Assembly (NCBI GenBank): GCA_017623295.1
Contig: JAGAPK010000045.1
Span: forward strand, 1 to 43,064
Length of the DNA stretch: 43,064 bases
Source: Lachnospiraceae bacterium
GTDB taxonomy: Bacteria; Bacillota; Clostridia; Lachnospirales; Lachnospiraceae
Direction: 5' to 3'
Under the pieces are notes generated by a model that was not told where the DNA came from, ran no database searches, and was given only the letters and a program-made list of their open reading frames with translations. A program made the translations under genes and the position numbers. Positions 327 through 39,120 of this stretch are shown here, piece by piece. The stretch's first letter is position 1. Each line of letters starts with the position of its first letter.

Positions 327-3300
327 GGAAACATAGACGGAAATGAAAACATAGACGGAAGTGACAGTGGAACTGGAGATGTACAGAATACAGGTGATAC
401 AACCACTTACTATGTGCTGACTTTTTCTTATGTAAGTGATTTGGAAACACCGATTGATTTATACCAGGTAAGCAGAATTATTGATGTGGCAGATGTTGGA
501 GAAGTTCCGCCTTATGATACTTATCAATTGTTAGAGCAAAATGAGGATACGGCAAACGGAGAATCGGATGAGGAATCCGATGAAGAATCTAATGAGAATC
601 GAAGCCTTGGCTTTGGTTTTGGATTTTCGTTGCGCCCGGGAAGTGGCACAGAGGATACATTCCTTTACGTGGGCCCTGGACAAGGCGAGTATATGTTACA
701 GCAGCTTCCGGAGGATTCTGACGATGCAATGCTTCTCAATGTAATCAATGCTCCGGTTTATATTCGATGCAAAAATCAGAATGACTGGTTAAAACAGTAC
801 GTTTTTAATTCTCTTGCCGGTGAAGAAAACGAATCCGATAGTTTCACCATTCAGATTCAGACAGTAAGAGCCAATGAAGTGACGGAGGAGATGGTTGCCA
901 AGGCGAATTTGATCTATTTGGAAGATGGTATGGTTAGTGTGCCGGGGAGCAGTGATGGACTTGTCAAAAATTTCGTGACAATGGATACTTCAGGCGGTAC
1001 TGGAAATGATATGAGTAGAAATGCTGTTTTTGCGATTGTATATCGTGCGGTGAGTGATTTACTTCCGGTGATTGTTGATTATGGTGTTGTGGCGAATACA
1101 ACAGATTATGCAGATACAAATTATCAGAAGTTGGCGAATATTATGTTGAAAAAGGATTTATCAACATATTTTTCTGATATGGAAAATGTGGATAATCTTT
1201 TTATGAATATTGCATCTTCTGATTATCCGAACAAAATAGACAACAACTATAATTATGTAAACCGAAATGTTTATATTGTAAATGACACTCCGGTAGCCGG
1301 AGAAGATTTTGACGAGGCTTTTAATGATGACAAAATCAATGCCGGATTTAAAGAGGTTAAGGCTACTATTTTAGCGGAAAACAGTACGTTATCAGAAGCG
1401 GATAAAATTTCGGAGAAAATAAGTAAGGCAAAGGTGATACAATATATTATTAATTATGCGGTAGGATTAATTAGTGAATACAGGGATATACGTGTCCTTG
1501 AATTACAACCTACTAGTAATAGTGTTTCTGATTTGCATATTTTTGATAATGCAGAGAAGGATTATACGACGCTTTATTGGAAGAAGGCAGATAGTAAGAA
1601 TGCCGGACAGCAGGTTCTTCGTAGCACAAAGGTGATTGATATTGTGATAGACCAAAAATCAGTTGATGATTTTGCGGGAGACACAAGTGATATCAATAAT
1701 AATTATCATATGATTTTTATTGGTCTGGATGGGCAACTGCTTAATTATGAAAATAAAAAGACAGTCTATAATGATACATCTTTGAATGGCAAAGTATATA
1801 CGGCAACAGGTGATATTGCAAATGATAGTGGAAGCCGTTATGCAGGAATTGATTTAACGCAGGAAAAGAAAAATGCATTGCTTGACTTTATGCGCGCAGG
1901 TTATCCGATTGTAGTAGAAGATGATTTCTTTGTGAATAAAACAGCCAAGGAGGTTGGAGCAGGGGCAATCAATACCCAATATGTAGAAGAAACCTCACAA
2001 ATGTTCGATTTTTTACAGAGAGCAATTTCAGAGTATCAGGATTATATTTATACGATTTCTGATCTTCATAGTAGTGCAATGTTTTCGGCACAAATTAACA
2101 TGAGTCGTCCACAAATCAGCTATCAGGAAGATGATACAGCTAGCGTGCAGTCTGTTGAAGTGGACGATGAAGGTAATTATAGAGGCAGTATTGCATATCG
2201 TATAACAGATGATAAAGGAGAGAGTTATGCGGGTACAGTGAATCTTCGTCTGTTTTTTGACTTGAACAATGACGGAAGATATACAGAAGCAGAAGAAGTA
2301 GGACTAGATAAATATAGTAATGAAAATGGAACGATTATCATTGATTTTGATGATGCGAATAAAGGTATTATACCGTGGAAGTTAGAAGTTTCGGATGAAG
2401 GAAATACATTCAGAAGAGATGATTTACAGGGCTTTTTTGTTGTTTCGCATGAAAATCTGACACCGGTTCGAATCCTTCAGATTGCAGATGAATCAGCAGA
2501 TGAGGCATCGAATTTGGAAGCTACTTACGAAGTGTCCAATACTATGCTGGGTTACTGTCTGCATGGAGCAGAAGGAATCACCGAAAGTAGTTTTAACATC
2601 AAAACATTGACACCAAAGCAGCTTCAGGAAAAACTTGCACAACAGAGCAGCTATTTGGAAGGTTGGGATGTACTCGTACTTGGGTTCGGTCCAAGTTATC
2701 AGTTGGGAGATGCTACCGACGCCGTTGCCGATTATATAGAAGCGAATCGCCCGGTGGTCATATCTTCTGTGGCAATCAGTGAAGAAAGCGGCTGTATGGG
2801 TTTAAGCAAGGCGATGCTTGGTTTATCGCAGACAGGTACGTATGAAAATCTCGGACAGACCAAAGGTGGTCAGAAGTATTATCGGTTTAATAACCTAAAA
2901 GAAGATATGTTCGGAGCAAGTCAGAACCAGATAGTGGAACAGATAAATAATGGTGTGATTTCACATTACCCATATGAGATTGATACAGCAAATCTTATGA
3001 TTTATCAGTCCGTTGAAGCAGGAGATTATTTGCTCGATTTTGCACAAAATGATTCAGGACAGGATAGCAGTGCTGTAACGGCATGGTATAGTCTTGGTAA
3101 TTCCTTTGCAGGAGGGAATCCGGGCATCTATGATGTGTCGAAACAAGATGCGGCGAACAATTATTATGTGTACAGCAAAGGAAGTATTGTCTATGTGGGA
3201 CAGGATTCCTATCCGTTCTCTTTTGACAGTACTACGACAGCAGATCCAATGAAAGAGGATGGTGCAACAGAATGTAGGATTTTTGTCAATGCACTGATGA

Positions 3301-3824
3301 CAGCTTACAATGCCGGTGTGAAGAATCCTACCGTATCTATTGTTGCGGGTTTTGCAAAAGATGCGCCGGAGATAGAAAGTGTATGTATTCCTTTTGATCA
3401 ACAGATTCAAGAGGCGGGTGATGCGGAAGGTGGTTTGCTAGAGCAGACTACGGATGTATTCTTTAAAATGAATGATCCCAATATTGCTTTTTCCAAAACA
3501 GTAGAAATCTCTTTCTACTATAATGATGATGCCGGAACTGAGGTGGAAATAGGCGGTCAAACAGTACATGCAACGGCATTTTCAACACCAATCTGGATGG
3601 TACAGAACGGACAGCTTGTCGAAGTTGGTAGCGATGAAGAGTTAAAGCAAGGATGTATTTACAAAATAAAAGCCCCTGTGGTTGCTTTGCGTGATGGTAA
3701 TAAAACCGGAGCGGGAATTTATGTAGTAGTACAATCGAAATTCCAGAAATTTGGAAGAGAGCAGACCGCAGTTGGCAGTGATTGTATTACGATTAATCGG
3801 GCACAGCTTTTCTTGTTGGAATAA
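3..3824 (+). CDS. Large DUF5057-like surface protein, 5' partial
   Basis: The 3' part of a very large protein; 1273 residues are visible and the start lies upstream of the window. The reading frame is open from the first complete codon (position 3). A GTG at 414 could be mistaken for the start, but it is internal. The visible part begins with about 108 residues of alternating Gly-Ser/Gly-Asp, then a short Asn/Asp-rich segment, then a long globular region. Around 2258-2295 an EF-hand-like loop ([12 protein letters not shown]) has Asp, Asn, Asp and Glu at calcium-ligand positions. Around 2650-2770 a segment containing [12 protein letters not shown] and RPVVISS looks like an amidotransferase-type Rossmann fold. 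The C-terminus is beta-rich. The overall look matches large DUF5057 proteins of Lachnospiraceae, a family name recalled from knowledge. The repetitive linker suggests an extracellular, possibly anchored protein, but no signal peptide can be seen because the N-terminus is missing. Function unknown. Confidence 0.7.
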
Positions 3825-33066: not shown

Positions 33067-34137
33067 ATGAAAAATATATTGGTGGTTGACGACTCTGCAC
33101 TTATGAGAAGGGTATTGTGTGATATAATCAATGGAGATGAAAGATTCCATGTACAGGATCGAGCTAACAATGGATTGGAAGCGTTAGAATTGCTTAGCAA
33201 AAAATCCTATGATGCGGTTGTTTTAGATGTGAATATGCCGCAGATGAATGGATTAGAATTGCTGAAGGAATTGCAGAAACGCAAAATTTCCGTCAGAGTT
33301 ATGATGGCAAGTACAGATACCAAGGAAGGCGCGAAGACAACATTAGATGCATTGGAATTGGGAGCACTTGATTTTATTCACAAACCGGACAATGCAATGG
33401 CTTGTCGTAGTGGTGAATTTAAAGAAAAATTGCTTCAGGTTCTTGCAGTTGTAGTAGAGTCTAAACCGCCGGTATTTGGTAAGACCTTCACAATGGAAGA
33501 AGTTAAAACTTCCAAGAAAATGGTTGAACTTGTCGGAAAGCATACTGGTTCTGTTCCGGGTAATAAAATTGTTGCAATTGCAAGTTCTACGGGTGGACCG
33601 AAAGCTTTACAGGCGGTCATCCCAAGATTGCCGAAGAATCTGAAAGCACCGGTAGTTGTTGTACAGCATATGCCGGCAGGATTTACAGCATCTTTAGCAG
33701 AGCGACTGGACTCCTTAAGTGAAGTGCATGTAAAGGAAGCAGCAGAGGGAGATATTCTGGAAGCAGGAAATGTATATATTGCTATGGGTGGTAAACATCT
33801 GAATGTCATTACGATGGCCAGTAAATATACGATTCATTATTCGGACGAGCCATCCAGAGAAGGTGTGAAACCATGTGCCAATTATATGTATGAGTCTTTG
33901 GCTGGAAGTAAATTCGATCAGGTTGTATGTGTCGTTATGACAGGTATGGGAGCCGATGGTACAAAAGGAATCCAGAATTTGAGAGAAAAAAAGAAACTGC
34001 ATGTTATTGCGCAGGAATCCAGTACATGTGCAGTATATGGAATGCCAAGAAGTATTGTAAATTCCGGACTGGCAGACCAGATTGTACCGCTGGAACAGAT
34101 AGCGCAGGAAATTATAATGAACGTGGGGGTAAGATGA
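33067..34137 (+). CDS. cheB: Chemotaxis methylesterase CheB
   Basis: Removes methyl groups (and deamidates) chemoreceptors for adaptation. 356 residues. The receiver domain has Asp54 as phosphoacceptor. The methylesterase domain has the Ser-His-Asp triad, seen as Ser174 (ASSTGGPKA), His201 (VVVQHMPAGFT) and Asp297 (MTGMGADGTKG). The partner methyltransferase CheR is not in the window. cheA begins one base after the stop. Confidence 0.96.
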   Translation: MKNILVVDDSALMRRVLCDIINGDERFHVQDRANNGLEALELLSKKSYDAVVLDVNMPQMNGLELLKELQKRKISVRVMMASTDTKEGAKTTLDALELGALDFIHKPDNAMACRSGEFKEKLLQVLAVVVESKPPVFGKTFTMEEVKTSKKMVELVGKHTGSVPGNKIVAIASSTGGPKALQAVIPRLPKNLKAPVVVVQHMPAGFTASLAERLDSLSEVHVKEAAEGDILEAGNVYIAMGGKHLNVITMASKYTIHYSDEPSREGVKPCANYMYESLAGSKFDQVVCVVMTGMGADGTKGIQNLREKKKLHVIAQESSTCAVYGMPRSIVNSGLADQIVPLEQIAQEIIMNVGVR

Positions 34138-34138
34138 T

Positions 34139-35308
34139 ATGGACGTAAGCCAATATTTGGAGATTTTCCTGGATGAAACAAACGAACATTTACAGAATCT
34201 GAATACACAGATTCTCTCATTGGAGCAGGAGCCAGACAATATGGACACTATCAATGAGATTTTCCGTGCTGCACATTCCTTAAAAGGTATGGCAGGAACA
34301 ATGGGGTATAAAAGAATGCAGACTCTTACCCATGATATGGAAAATGTATTTTCTGAAGTGCGTAACGGGAATATTACAGTTAAGGCTAATATGATTGATA
34401 TTTTATTCCAGTGTCTGGATGCATTGGAAGAGTATAACACTAATATTAGAGAAAGTGCTGATGAAGGTACAAATGATAATGAACCATTGATTAAGCAGTT
34501 AAATGATATTCTTAATGGTGGTTCCGGTGAAGCGGTGCAGCAGGAAGAAACATCTGCAAAATCTGAGCCGGAAAGCACTGATACAGCGGAAGAAACAGAT
34601 AACAGCGATAAGAAATGGCTTGATATTAAACTGGATGAATCTGAAATCAATGTTTTAAAAGAAGCAAAGAAACAGGGCAAAAAAATCTATGGGTTGACTG
34701 TAAAAGTGCAGGAATCCTGTATTTTGAAAGCAGCAAGAGCATTCCTTGTATTTAAAGCAGTAGAAGAAACCAGTGAGATTATCGTTTCCAGCCCATCTGC
34801 ACAGGATATTGAAGATGAGAAATTTGATTTGGACTTTAGCTTAATTATTGTTTCTGACAGTCCGATTGATACCATCTTAAAAGCAGCAAAAGATGTGTCT
34901 GAAATCGAAGATGTTTTAGGCGACGTATTTGATGTTGCAAAGGTGGCAGCAGGAGCGAAAGAAGAAAAAGCTGATGCTAAAGTAGAAGTGAAAGAAACTG
35001 TGAAAACAGAAGTTGCAGCAGCTGCACCTACACAGGCGGCACCTGCAGCTACAGCAGCACCTGCACAGGCAGCAGGTAAGAATGATAAGAAACCGGCAGC
35101 AGGTAAACCGGTTGTAAATAGAACAGTCAGAGTAGATATTGAGAAACTCGACACTCTGATGAATCTTGTCAGCGAGCTTATTATTGCAAAGAACTCTCTG
35201 GTATCTGCATCCTCAACAGAGAACAATGCAAATTCAGAAGTACTTGAACAGATTGAATATTTGGAAAGCGTAACAACATCCTTACATGAATCCGTAATGA
35301 AAGTATGA
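34139..35308 (+). CDS. cheA: Chemotaxis kinase CheA, N-terminal part (ends at an in-frame TGA)
   Basis: First 389 residues of CheA. The P1 domain has phosphoacceptor His46 (AAHSLKGMAGTMG). The P2 CheY/CheB-binding domain spans about 160-265. An Ala/Pro/Gln-rich linker follows, then the start of the P3 dimerization domain (VRVDIEKLDTLMNLVSELII). The frame stops at TGA (35306-35308) inside the second P3 helix, where other CheA proteins have the Arg of the Arg-Met-x-Pro motif. The next codon is ATG and the same frame continues through the rest of CheA. One base change (for example CGA to TGA) would explain it. Either a true mutation, a sequencing error, or a natural split. Confidence 0.93.
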   Translation: MDVSQYLEIFLDETNEHLQNLNTQILSLEQEPDNMDTINEIFRAAHSLKGMAGTMGYKRMQTLTHDMENVFSEVRNGNITVKANMIDILFQCLDALEEYNTNIRESADEGTNDNEPLIKQLNDILNGGSGEAVQQEETSAKSEPESTDTAEETDNSDKKWLDIKLDESEINVLKEAKKQGKKIYGLTVKVQESCILKAARAFLVFKAVEETSEIIVSSPSAQDIEDEKFDLDFSLIIVSDSPIDTILKAAKDVSEIEDVLGDVFDVAKVAAGAKEEKADAKVEVKETVKTEVAAAAPTQAAPAATAAPAQAAGKNDKKPAAGKPVVNRTVRVDIEKLDTLMNLVSELIIAKNSLVSASSTENNANSEVLEQIEYLESVTTSLHESVMKV

Positions 35309-36265
35309 ATGGTGCCAATCGAAAGTGTTGTTACTAAGTTCCCACGTATGATTCGTGACTTGTCCAAGAAATTGAACAAGAAAATGGAATTATATATGTC
35401 CGGTGAGGAGACAGAACTTGACCGTACTGTAGTAGATGAAATTGGTGATCCTTTGATGCACTTGTTACGTAATTCTGCTGATCATGGCTTAGAGTCTGCT
35501 GAACTGCGTAAAGAAAGAGGAAAGCCAGAAGTTGGATCTATTTTCCTGGATGCTTATCAGGATGGTAACAACGTTGTTATTGAAGTTAGAGATGATGGTA
35601 ATGGTATCGATACAGAAGGTGTTAAGAATAAAGCGATTGATCGTGGCATAATTACACCGGAACAGGCTGAAAGCATGAATGAGAAAGAAATCATTGATTT
35701 ACTTTTCCACGCAGGCTTTTCAACAGCAAAGGTAGTATCTGATGTATCCGGTCGAGGAGTTGGTCTGGATGTTGTCAAATCCAAGATTGAAGCTTTAAGC
35801 GGTGAAGTAGAAGTTAAGAGTAAACTTGGCGAAGGAAGTACATGGATTATCAGACTGCCACTTACACTCGCAATTATCCAGGCACTTATGGTTGATATTG
35901 GTAATGAGAAATATGCGATTTCTCTTGGCTCTATCCAGACAATCGAAGATATTTCTATCAGCGATGTGAAGTTAGTTCAGAATAAAGAAGTTATCAATTT
36001 AAGAGGTACGGTTATTCCGTTAATTAGATTAAATGAGATTCTGGATATCCCAAGCAAAAAAGATTCACAGGATAATCTGATTGTTGTTATTGTAAAGAAA
36101 GGTGACAAACAGGCGGGTCTTGTTGTTGATGAATTAATTGGACAGCAGGAAATTGTTATCAAGTCTATGGGCAAATATATCAACAAATGTAAGATTATCA
36201 GTGGTGCAACAATTCTTGGTGACGGTGAAGTTGCATTGATTCTGGATGCAAACGCAGTGATTTAA
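35309..36265 (+). CDS. cheA: Chemotaxis kinase CheA, C-terminal part (in frame after the TGA)
   Basis: 318 residues in the same frame, directly after the TGA. They start MVPIESVVTKFPRMIRDLSK, the end of P3. The P4 ATPase domain follows with the N box LMHLLRNSADHGLE, G1 box VRDDGNGID and G2 region STAKVVSDVSGRGVGLDVV. The P5 CheW-like domain begins about ALMVDIGNEKYAISLGSI. All ATP-binding residues look intact. No Shine-Dalgarno precedes the ATG at 35309, so it would be made only by stop readthrough or translational restart. Intact CheA would be 708 residues. Confidence 0.9.
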   Translation: MVPIESVVTKFPRMIRDLSKKLNKKMELYMSGEETELDRTVVDEIGDPLMHLLRNSADHGLESAELRKERGKPEVGSIFLDAYQDGNNVVIEVRDDGNGIDTEGVKNKAIDRGIITPEQAESMNEKEIIDLLFHAGFSTAKVVSDVSGRGVGLDVVKSKIEALSGEVEVKSKLGEGSTWIIRLPLTLAIIQALMVDIGNEKYAISLGSIQTIEDISISDVKLVQNKEVINLRGTVIPLIRLNEILDIPSKKDSQDNLIVVIVKKGDKQAGLVVDELIGQQEIVIKSMGKYINKCKIISGATILGDGEVALILDANAVI

Positions 36266-36285: not shown

Positions 36286-36738
36286 ATGGAAGAATTAAGA
36301 GTAGCCGGAGAAACAACTCAGTTCATCGTAATTAAGTTGGGCGACGAACAGTATGGCATTGATATTAAATACATAGACAATATTGTAAGAATGCAGCACA
36401 TTACCAGAGTGCCAAAAGTAGCTTCCTATCTGAAAGGAGTTATCAATCTGCGTGGTGAAGTTATCCCTGTTATGAGCATTCGTATCAAAATGGGATTACC
36501 GGTTGATGAAATTACCAAATCCAGCAGAATTATTATTCTGAAAATGGAGCAGCAGGGTACAATTGGTGTGATTGTGGATGAAGTAAAAGAAGTAGTAACT
36601 TTGGACACAGCACAAATTGAAAAAGTATCTTATGATTCCAAGGATGAAAAAGCTAATTTTATTTCCGGAATCGGTAAGTATGAAGGTGGTCTGATTTCCT
36701 TGTTAGACCTTAATCTCGTAGTACCTGAAAATGCTTAG
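36286..36738 (+). CDS. cheW: Chemotaxis coupling protein CheW
   Basis: Couples CheA to chemoreceptors. 150 residues, a single CheW domain: QFIVIKLGDEQYGIDIKYID, then VASYLKGVINLRGEVIPVMS with the conserved NLRG, and ISLLDLNLV at the end. AGGGAGG lies upstream. Its stop is followed by the cheC ribosome-binding site. Confidence 0.96.
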   Translation: MEELRVAGETTQFIVIKLGDEQYGIDIKYIDNIVRMQHITRVPKVASYLKGVINLRGEVIPVMSIRIKMGLPVDEITKSSRIIILKMEQQGTIGVIVDEVKEVVTLDTAQIEKVSYDSKDEKANFISGIGKYEGGLISLLDLNLVVPENA

Positions 36739-36749
36739 GAGGTTATCAC

Positions 36750-37367
36750 GTGGGTGATTTAAGTTTAGATCAAATGTCCCAGGAATATTTTGATATTTTA
36801 AAAGAACTGGGCAACATTGGAGCAGGTAATGCTACTACTGCATTGGCGCAAATGCTCCAATGCAAGGTAGATATGTCAGTTCCACAGGTTAATTTGCTTG
36901 AATTTAAGGAACTGGGTGCTGTTATGGGTGGAGAAGAACAGATTATGGCAGGTATTTATCTCGGCGTGGAAGGAGATATTACAGGCAGTATTATGTTTCT
37001 TCTGGAGAAAAACTCAGCAAAACATCTGGTAGGCAAATTAATGGGAATGACGTCAGAAGGAGAAGAGTTTTCTGAAATGGAGTTTTCTGCTTTGAAAGAA
37101 GTGGGAAATATCATTACAGGTGCGTATTTAAATTCTCTTTCAACATTGACCAATTTAGTAATTTATCCATCGATACCGGATTTGACAGTAGATATGGCAG
37201 GCGCGATTTTAAGCGTGCCTGCAATCGAATTTGGTGCTTTGGGAGACAGAATATTGCTGATTCAGACCCAGTTTTTTGATGAGGTTGCAATTGATGGATA
37301 TTTTATCCTGATTCCTGATTTGGATTCTTACGGGCGAATATTATCAGCGTTGGGAATGGCAGGTTAA
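36750..37367 (+). CDS. cheC: CheY-P phosphatase CheC
   Basis: Dephosphorylates CheY-P and is stimulated by CheD. 205 residues. Two active-site motifs are intact: DILKELGN and SALKEVGN, each followed by proline after exactly 22 residues. The start is GTG at 36750, with AGGAGG seven bases upstream. Confidence 0.95.
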   Translation: MGDLSLDQMSQEYFDILKELGNIGAGNATTALAQMLQCKVDMSVPQVNLLEFKELGAVMGGEEQIMAGIYLGVEGDITGSIMFLLEKNSAKHLVGKLMGMTSEGEEFSEMEFSALKEVGNIITGAYLNSLSTLTNLVIYPSIPDLTVDMAGAILSVPAIEFGALGDRILLIQTQFFDEVAIDGYFILIPDLDSYGRILSALGMAG

Positions 37368-37402: not shown

Positions 37403-37888
37403 ATGGGAGAAATTATAAAGGTCGGTATGGCCGATTTGAATGTATGTGTCAGTCCTGATGGTATTACTACTTTAGGGCTTGGCTCGTGTGTCGGGATTGC
37501 GTTAAGAGATCCGGTAACAAAAATAGGTGGTCTGGCGCATGTAATGCTTCCGGACAGTACAGCGATTAGAAATAACAGTAATATTCCGAAGTTTGCAGAT
37601 ACAGGAATTGAAGAACTGGTGCGTAAAGTAGTTGCAAAAGGTGCAAGCAGAACAAGATTGGTAGCCAAAATTGCTGGTGGCGCGCAGATGTTTGCGTTTC
37701 AGAGTAAATCGGATATGGTGCGTGTTGGCGAGAGAAATGTGGAAGCCTGTAAAAAGAAACTTGCAGAACTTAGAATACCGATTCTGGCAGAAGATACCGG
37801 TGACAGCTATGGAAGAACCGTTATTTTTTATCCGGAAACAGGCGATTTTATTATTCGTGCGGTAGGAAAACCGGAGAAAGTTATTTAA
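37403..37888 (+). CDS. cheD: Chemoreceptor glutamine deamidase CheD
   Basis: Deamidates receptor glutamines and regulates CheC. 161 residues. Catalytic Cys29 lies in LGLGSCVGIALRDP and His46 in GLAHVMLP, with threonines at 22-23 at the expected catalytic position. The end (SYGRTVIFYPETGDFIIR) is typical. AGGAG precedes the ATG. Confidence 0.95.
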   Translation: MGEIIKVGMADLNVCVSPDGITTLGLGSCVGIALRDPVTKIGGLAHVMLPDSTAIRNNSNIPKFADTGIEELVRKVVAKGASRTRLVAKIAGGAQMFAFQSKSDMVRVGERNVEACKKKLAELRIPILAEDTGDSYGRTVIFYPETGDFIIRAVGKPEKVI

Positions 37889-37920: not shown

Positions 37921-38301
37921 TTGGAGAAAGAAAATCAAAAGTATATCACGGATATCGTGGATACAGATAAAGAAAGACAACGTGAACAGGAGCAGAAAGA
38001 AGCAGCTAAACGGGCGAAGAAAAGAAGATTGATTCCCCCGTTTGTTATGCTCCTTGCAGGTGCCGTTACCAGTATTACAATGTATGTACTGCACTATAAT
38101 GTTAAAGACATGCTTGTTATCCTGTTTTGGGTATTGCTTGGCTTTTATGTTGCCGGCGATCTGATTAAGTGGATGATTGACCGGTTTGAAGCACAGATAG
38201 AGCAGAAACGCATGGAAGAAGGAGAAGTAATAGAGAAGGAACTCGCCGAGGAAGATGGTACAGAGCAGGCTGTAGATGAAGAGGAAAAGAGCGAAGAATA
38301 A
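37921..38301 (+). CDS. Small membrane protein of unknown function upstream of sigD
   Basis: 126 residues, not recognised. A charged N-terminus (about 1-36, Lys/Glu/Arg) precedes two membrane helices at about 38-56 and 61-79 (IPPFVMLLAGAVTSITMYVL and MLVILFWVLLGFYVAGDLIK). A very acidic tail follows (about 95-126). The start is TTG at 37921, with GGAAGG about eight bases upstream. It lies tightly between cheD and sigD on the same strand, so it is probably expressed with them; a motility role is only inferred. Confidence 0.75.
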   Translation: MEKENQKYITDIVDTDKERQREQEQKEAAKRAKKRRLIPPFVMLLAGAVTSITMYVLHYNVKDMLVILFWVLLGFYVAGDLIKWMIDRFEAQIEQKRMEEGEVIEKELAEEDGTEQAVDEEEKSEE

Positions 38302-38343: not shown

Positions 38344-39120
38344 ATGGATGAAGCAGGCAAAAAAAAGCTTTGGGAAGAGTATGGTAAATCCAAATCGCCT
38401 GAAGTAAGAGAAAAAATTATATTGGAATATGCTCCGCTTGTGAAACTGGTCGCAGGAAGACTAAGTATGTATCTTGGATACAATGTAGAATATGAAGATT
38501 TGGTAAGTTATGGTATTTTTGGGTTAATCGATGCAATTGATAAATTCGATTCATTGAAAGATGTCAAGTTTGAAACCTATGCAAGTCTTCGTATCCGAGG
38601 GGCTATACTTGATCAGATTCGAAAGATGGACTGGATACCCAGAACAATCAGACAAAAGCAGAAGAAAATTGATGCAGCAATCAAAGAAATTGAATTAAAA
38701 TATGGTAGAAGTGCTACCGATGAAGAGATTGCAGTAAGTCTGGGGATTTCCAATGAAGAATATTTGGAATGGCAATCTCAGATGAAGGTAACCAATGTTG
38801 TTTCTCTGAATGAATTTATGGAACAGGGAAGCGAGATTCCGACCGATAACAGTTATAATCGTAAAGCTCAGTTTGATGGTCCGGAAGAGGTTATTGAGAA
38901 AGATGAGTTAAAACAAATTCTGGCACAGGCACTTGAACTTCTGACAGAAAAGGAACGTAAAGTTATTGTGCTTTATTATTATGAAGATTTAACACTGAAG
39001 GAAATCAGCAGCATTTTGGAAGTGTCAGAATCAAGAATTTCACAACTTCATACGAGAGCTTTGCAGAAGATGAAAAGTAAATTGGGCAATTATATGGGTA
39101 TATTAACGGAAGCACGCTAA
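38344..39120 (+). CDS. sigD: Flagellar sigma factor SigD (sigma-28, FliA family)
   Basis: Directs RNA polymerase to late flagellar and chemotaxis promoters. 258 residues. Region 2: EDLVSYGIFGLIDAIDKFDS, then FETYASLRIRGAILDQIRKM. Region 3: RQKQKKIDAAIKEIE. Region 4: ALELLTEKERKVIVLYYYED with LTLKEISSILEVSESRISQL. Its anti-sigma factor FlgM is not in the window. Lying near the 3' end of a long transcript may limit its amount, as shown for Bacillus subtilis. Confidence 0.96.
   Translation: MDEAGKKKLWEEYGKSKSPEVREKIILEYAPLVKLVAGRLSMYLGYNVEYEDLVSYGIFGLIDAIDKFDSLKDVKFETYASLRIRGAILDQIRKMDWIPRTIRQKQKKIDAAIKEIELKYGRSATDEEIAVSLGISNEEYLEWQSQMKVTNVVSLNEFMEQGSEIPTDNSYNRKAQFDGPEEVIEKDELKQILAQALELLTEKERKVIVLYYYEDLTLKEISSILEVSESRISQLHTRALQKMKSKLGNYMGILTEAR

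What the first reader, a model, noticed from the sequence alone, without database searches (positions are those of the whole stretch)
35306..35308. CheA interrupted by a single in-frame TGA at the conserved Arg of the P3 domain
Upstream and downstream pieces lie in one frame with no missing residues: SLHESVMKV, stop, MVPIESVV. Other CheA proteins have Arg exactly here (the Arg-Met-x-Pro motif), so one base change (CGA or AGA to TGA) suffices. An ATG follows the stop at once, so the two halves could be read by restart or readthrough, though no Shine-Dalgarno is seen. If real, the dimerization helix is split while P1, P2, P4 and P5 are all intact. Options are a recent loss of chemotaxis in this strain, a natural two-piece kinase, programmed readthrough, or a base-calling error.
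Basis: partly seen in the sequence, partly recalled or inferred. Interest (0 to 1): 0.75.

Follow-up and report, generated by a model that had tools for sequence, protein, structure and literature searches.

The report
Chemotaxis kinase gene with premature stop
The only copy found of the chemotaxis kinase gene in this bacterium's draft genome carries one stop codon in the middle that none of the relatives examined has at that place, so it looks like an ordinary, very recent knock-out mutation (or a draft-genome error) rather than a new kind of kinase.

Summary
In detail: an in-frame TGA at 35306-35308 cuts cheA into 389 + 318 codons with nothing missing, and ATG follows at once. One correction: Pfam's P3 dimerization domain is complete upstream, and solved P4 and P4-P5 constructs begin aligning at the stop. 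The helix is not split; P4 is cut from P3.

The stop is private to this genome among those examined. 119 of 119 distinct related coding sequences read Arg here. It is the only CheA found in this 88%-complete draft. Matches to CheR, receptor and flagellin domains show no stops. By parsimony, the P4-P5 half fixed 37 synonymous and 0 amino-acid changes on the window's branch, so the stop is very recent, or the halves are still made, or the base is wrong.

Restart is weakly supported: Shine-Dalgarno pairing is nearly absent, and an overlapping out-of-frame ATGA competes. Readthrough has no support: no tRNA-Sec or SelB over cut-off and no UCA anticodon seen.

Best reading: a recent nonsense allele abolishing chemotaxis, with consensus error the main rival. 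Ordinary.

The parts
34139..35308 (+). 5' piece of cheA: P1 (Hpt), P2 and complete P3 (H-kinase_dim), 389 aa, ending at the TGA
   Evidence: ORF list; Pfam Hpt, P2 and H-kinase_dim all over cut-off
35306..35308 (+). in-frame TGA at a column that is Arg in all relatives examined; P3-P4 junction
35309..36265 (+). 3' piece of cheA: P4 (HATPase_c) and P5 (CheW-like), 318 aa, ATG directly after the stop
   Evidence: 37 synonymous and 0 non-synonymous changes on the window branch by parsimony
35305..35337 (+). out-of-frame ATG overlapping the TGA (ATGA); 10-codon frame ending in TAA, a competitor for any restart
33067..34137 (+). cheB (receiver + methylesterase), intact, directly upstream
36286..36738 (+). 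cheW, intact
36750..37367 (+). cheC, intact
37403..37888 (+). cheD, intact
38344..39120 (+). sigma-70-type factor at the fliA position, intact
   Evidence: Sigma70_r2, r3 and r4; the name fliA is inferred from position

Best explanation
A single-base nonsense substitution arose very recently in the only CheA gene found in a genome whose chemotaxis and flagellar genes otherwise look intact. Translation makes a P1-P2-P3 fragment that can dimerize and offer P1 and P2, but it carries no catalytic P4 and no P5. The P4-P5 half is made little or not at all. Without P4 there is no phosphoryl donor for CheY or CheB, so the flagella should still be built but the cell should be non-chemotactic. Shown: the stop, its uniqueness among the relatives examined, intact neighbours and strong past constraint on both halves. 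Inferred: the lack of P4-P5 production and the phenotype. Not resolved: whether the base is real in the strain.
For: The TGA is private: 119 of 119 distinct relatives have an Arg codon there. The window departs from only 1 of 227 otherwise invariant CheA columns, the stop itself. On the window branch there are 37 S and 0 N in the 3' half and 33 S and 4 N in the 5' half, against about 675 S and 128 N summed over the other genes aligned to both relatives, so no decay has accumulated. No other + strand gene showed an internal stop relative to G041 and G021 where they cover the window. There is one H-kinase_dim in the genome. One CheR, 17 MCP signalling-domain matches and 2 flagellins have no stops. 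The start at 35309 lacks a Shine-Dalgarno. Isolated nonsense codons also occur in other relatives' cheA, at other sites with another stop: TAA at 665 in one same-genus species (L019 and L048 show the same codon) and TAA at 244 in G092.
Against: The same lack of decay is expected if the base is an assembly or base-calling error, or if both halves are still made. The cut falls between P3 and P4 with ATG next, which is where a workable split would be. No reads, second assembly or other strain of this species could be examined.
Confidence: 0.65

Rival explanations
1. Consensus error: the draft assembly took a wrong or minority base at this position, and the organism has an ordinary CheA.
For: The genome is a 74-contig draft, 87.75% complete by the tool's estimate. 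The rest of the protein matches every other invariant column and both halves are constrained, as expected for a working gene.
Against: No sign of a poor consensus: no frameshift or other nonsense in the window's + strand genes against two relatives where they cover it, and no stops in 85 ABC-transporter matches or 17 MCP matches genome-wide. These checks would see indels and nonsense errors, not most substitution errors.
Confidence: 0.22
2. A working two-piece kinase: the ribosome stops at TGA and restarts at the adjacent ATG, giving P1-P2-P3 and P4-P5 proteins that meet again in the receptor array through P5-CheW and P1-P4 contacts.
For: The distance between stop and start is 0 nt, and reinitiation needs very short distances (PMC10666635: abstract and section 6 read). 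The P4-P5 piece starts close to where solved P4 and P4-P5 chains (1i58, 2ch4) start aligning. Both halves were under purifying selection. Split CheA pairs exist in Rhodobacter sphaeroides (PMC3591291, passages).
Against: Not conserved in any relative examined. No Shine-Dalgarno (-0.7 kcal/mol). An out-of-frame ATGA start competes. In R. sphaeroides the passages seen say that CheA3 lacks P3 and P4 and that CheA4 lacks P1, and CheA4 keeps P3 with P4 (recalled), whereas here P4 is cut from P3. PMC6954272 (passages) reports tight structural coupling between P3 and P4.
Confidence: 0.08
3. UGA readthrough, by selenocysteine, a suppressor tRNA or leaky decoding, makes enough full-length CheA.
For: Constraint on both halves. 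The RNA around and after the stop folds somewhat better than shuffles (z -2.1; -2.0).
Against: No tRNA-Sec over the gathering score. No SelB over its cut-off. No UCA anticodon in the ARAGORN reading of the loci of all 37 tRNA matches (10 of 160 first-look candidates were not scored). TGA ends 3 of the 41 other window ORFs aligned to relatives, so it is an ordinary stop. Of 13 relatives chosen without this stop, one folds at z -2.9 and one at -2.5, while the two nearest do not fold better than chance. The draft is incomplete.
Confidence: 0.05

Closest known systems
Sporadic nonsense mutation (recent pseudogene) in a bacterial chemotaxis gene
   Same: Single in-frame stop, otherwise intact and conserved gene, private to one genome among those examined, neighbours intact
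   Different: Nothing distinctive except the position at a domain junction with an adjacent ATG
Split CheA3/CheA4 kinase of Rhodobacter sphaeroides (PMC3591291, passages read)
   Same: CheA domains on two polypeptides
   Different: There CheA3 lacks P3 and P4, CheA4 lacks P1, and both bind the cluster by P5. Here the P1-P2-P3 piece has no P5 and the P4-P5 piece has no P3, and the arrangement is not conserved
CheA P4-P5 and P4 constructs in the PDB (2ch4, 4jpb; 1i58)
   Same: Their alignment to this protein begins at residue 390 (chain residue 3), next to the start of the 3' piece
   Different: Those were made for structure work; here production of the piece is unproven
Termination-reinitiation gene pairs (PMC10666635, abstract and one section; PMC6728339, search listing only)
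   Same: Stop and start within the distance that allows coupling
   Different: Typical pairs overlap by 4 or 1 nt (abstract of PMC10666635); here the in-frame pair is at 0 nt without SD, and the 4-nt overlap (ATGA) is out of frame

Membership tests
CheA (chemotaxis histidine kinase) | P1 (Hpt), P2, P3 (H-kinase_dim), P4 (HATPase_c) and P5 (CheW-like) in order | tested here: met
   All five Pfam domains over cut-off across the two pieces
CheA (chemotaxis histidine kinase) | All domains on one polypeptide | tested here: not met
   In-frame TGA after P3 under table 11
Recent nonsense allele / pseudogene | Intact orthologues in close relatives; stop private to this genome | tested here: met
   119 of 119 distinct relatives have Arg at this column
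Recent nonsense allele / pseudogene | Base present in the organism (reads) | not testable with these tools
   No reads or same-species strains held
Natural split CheA | Split conserved across related genomes | tested here: not met
   0 of 119 distinct relatives carry a stop at this column
Natural split CheA | Second piece has its own ribosome binding site or an established coupling | tested here: inconclusive
   No SD, but 0-nt spacing permits reinitiation
Selenoprotein / UGA recoding | tRNA-Sec and SelB in the genome | tested here: not met
   None over cut-off, in an 87.75%-complete draft

The most novel reading that the evidence does not exclude
A newly born two-piece CheA: one substitution at the P3-P4 junction yields, by stop-restart, a P1-P2-P3 dimer and a separate P4-P5 catalytic and array-binding protein that still signal in trans. 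That would be a natural test of whether P4 must be tethered to P3.
Probability: 0.06. Interest if true: 0.6.

Novelty: new member of a known kind. Interest (0 to 1): 0.15.

Why it matters
If the base is real, it is a recent knock-out of the only chemotaxis kinase found in a flagellated genome of Lachnospiraceae kinship (inferred from the titles of the relatives) that keeps 17 receptor signalling-domain matches. That is a snapshot of chemotaxis loss before any decay, in a family where 188 of 397 sampled genomes, incomplete ones included, had no CheA match at E <= 1e-60. If the two halves are made, it would test how far CheA catalysis depends on the P3-P4 tether. Otherwise it is one ordinary nonsense codon or a draft error.

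Tried and rejected
Selenocysteine and suppressor-tRNA readthrough: no tRNA-Sec over the gathering score (the two sub-threshold hits looked at were tRNA-Ser and tRNA-Gly genes), no SelB over cut-off, no UCA anticodon seen. Structured readthrough element: the window fold has z -2.1, but folds of 13 chosen relatives without this stop range from z 0.5 to -2.9 and the two nearest show none, so it was dropped. Rfam families in the window: none at gathering scores. A second CheA to cover the loss: none found. Genus-wide or family-wide conserved split: rejected. Chemotaxis genes as a broken set: no sign in this genome; one of the 17 MCP matches (C69) is partial and lies in a short frame between other genes, and whether it is a small protein or a remnant was not settled. 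Two apparent stops in relatives' cheB (L069, L079) turned out to lie at the edge of matches to a methylesterase without a receiver, not to be clear nonsense codons. Five stops in relatives' copies of the poorly conserved ORF 37921 were not followed.

Paper searches: in the titles and abstract openings listed (20 of 46 papers; 15 of 72), 38 and 43 I saw no report of a natural CheA cut at the P3-P4 junction; searches returned no paper. Read in part only: PMC10666635 (abstract, outline, section 6), and passages of PMC6954272, PMC3591291 and PMC10057733 (the last gave nothing used). PMC6728339 was seen only in a search listing.

Full report
Check of the observation. The sequence reads AAA GTA TGA ATG GTG across 35300-35314. 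The TGA at 35306-35308 ends ORF 34139-35308 (389 aa), and ORF 35309-36265 (318 aa) begins at the next base in the same frame. Read with X at the stop the product has 708 residues and aligned over residues 1-708 in 110 of 111 first-pass loci, two of them the window itself; the exception, L104, is cut by its contig. Pfam finds P1 (Hpt), P2 and H-kinase_dim upstream, and HATPase_c and CheW downstream, all over cut-off.

Where the stop lies. H-kinase_dim (P3) is matched to its last profile position by residues 328-389, all before the stop. Solved P4 and P4-P5 chains of CheA (1i58, 2ch4, 4jpb) align from residue 390, the stop itself, which is their chain residue 3. So the stop is at the P3-P4 junction.

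Relatives. With 30 more loci of the family added, 139 loci gave 119 distinct coding sequences: Arg in 119 of 119 at this column and ATG in 119 of 119 at the next. The window differed at one of 227 otherwise invariant columns, the stop. In leave-one-out (one short row of the 119 dropped), 95 of 118 other sequences differed at none of the columns invariant among the rest, and the mean was 0.35. Family-wide, 209 of 397 genomes, this one included, had a match at E <= 1e-60. Of the 150 rows printed (my count; more were not listed), two had an internal stop, this genome (TGA) and G092 (TAA). G092's stop is at residue 244, and a same-genus species (L019 and L048) has a TAA at residue 665. Lone nonsense codons thus occur in cheA of relatives, at scattered places and with a different stop, which fits sporadic loss or draft errors rather than a conserved split.

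Selection. G021 was taken as the nearer relative and G041 as outgroup (85.3% and 81.5% DNA identity). Window-branch changes by parsimony were 33 synonymous and 4 non-synonymous in the 5' piece, and 37 and 0 in the 3' piece; on the G021 branch they were 48.5 and 15.5, and 34 and 5. The other window genes aligned to both relatives summed to about 675 and 128 on the window branch. By hand arithmetic from those counts, and assuming neutral decay gives at least 2.5 non-synonymous changes per synonymous one, zero changes in the 3' piece means that less than about 3% of the branch is likely to have passed without constraint. The stop is very young, or the 3' piece is still used, or the base is wrong. 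This test cannot separate the three.

Surroundings. cheB lies upstream, and cheW, cheC, cheD, a sigma factor and fapA lie downstream, intact; flhA- and flhF-type genes also lie upstream. In the reverse test, 126 ORFs of the two relatives (80 aa or more, both strands, 55% identity or more) hit the window. cheA was the only + strand gene with an internal stop; the other rows with stops were - strand ORFs antisense to the window's genes. One + strand ORF was covered to only 78% because it runs off the contig start. Genome-wide, the tool found one H-kinase_dim, 17 MCP signalling-domain matches, one CheR over cut-off and two flagellins, none with stops, and 85 ABC-transporter matches without stops. 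One MCP match, on C69, is partial (positions 15-108 of 172) in a frame of about 104 codons from a GTG; it could be a small protein or a remnant of a receptor. The genome is a 74-contig draft, 87.75% complete, so a second CheA in a missing part cannot be excluded.

In the relatives' loci (61 to 80 loci by gene), the neighbouring genes flhF, flhG, ycgR, cheW, cheC, cheD, fliA and fapA had 0 internal stops and cheA had 1. cheB had 2 apparent ones, which belong to receiver-less methylesterase matches. The weakly conserved ORF 37921 had 5, which I did not follow.

Could the halves both be made? Restart at 35309 has the right distance (0 nt). PMC10666635 (abstract and section 6) shows that reinitiation depends on very short distances: at +2 nt it fell by 5, 20 and 70% in three E. 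coli pairs. But the site has almost no Shine-Dalgarno pairing, -0.7 kcal/mol against -5.0 to -11.9 for 11 other starts. The TGA also overlaps an out-of-frame ATG that opens a 10-codon frame ending in TAA, and overlaps of 4 or 1 nt are by far the commonest arrangement (abstract). Readthrough lacks its usual means: no tRNA-Sec over the gathering score, no SelB over cut-off, and no UCA anticodon in the ARAGORN reading of the loci of all 37 tRNA matches (30, 7; 10 of 160 first-look candidates were not scored). The RNA around the stop folds slightly better than shuffles, but so do some of the 13 relatives without this stop that I chose, and not the two nearest.

Mechanism committed to. If the base is real, translation yields a P1-P2-P3 dimer without kinase or array-binding domain. 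PMC6954272 (passages) assigns dimerization, ATP hydrolysis and receptor/CheW binding to P3, P4 and P5. Without P4, CheY and CheB receive no phosphoryl group, so a non-chemotactic but flagellated cell is expected (inferred from established knowledge of CheA; not tested). I give about 0.65 to a real recent nonsense allele, 0.22 to a consensus error, 0.08 to restart and 0.05 to readthrough; these are judgements, not computed.

Comparison. The closest natural split kinase I know is CheA3/CheA4 of R. sphaeroides (PMC3591291, passages), which is divided differently and is an established pair. This case fails the conservation test for a natural split. It is an ordinary interrupted gene unless proteomics shows otherwise.

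Noticed in passing
L048:5823 (same codon seen in L019): A same-genus relative has its own lone TAA in cheA at residue 665, inside P5, with the rest of the frame open; a second sporadic interruption of the same gene in the genus.
   Followed up: partly
L151 (G092:C284): Another family member has a TAA in cheA at residue 244 (P2).
   Followed up: partly
L069:3260-3886 and L079:3239-3883: In two relatives the cheB match covers only the methylesterase part (residues 147-356 and 130-355) with no receiver match found in the locus; possibly stand-alone methylesterases at the cheB position.
   Followed up: partly
L186:1519-1833 (contig C69 of the window's genome): A 104-codon frame holding only part of an MCP signalling domain, alone between other genes; a small protein or a receptor remnant.
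   Followed up: partly
window 37921-38301: A 126-aa ORF between cheD and the sigma factor with no Pfam match, poorly conserved (about 74% identity to the two nearest relatives); five relatives show stops inside the alignment, four of them at residue 110 or 111.
   Followed up: no
window 414-3824: A large protein with a DUF5057 match next to topoisomerase I; its frame is open to the window's first bases, where the contig begins.
   Followed up: no
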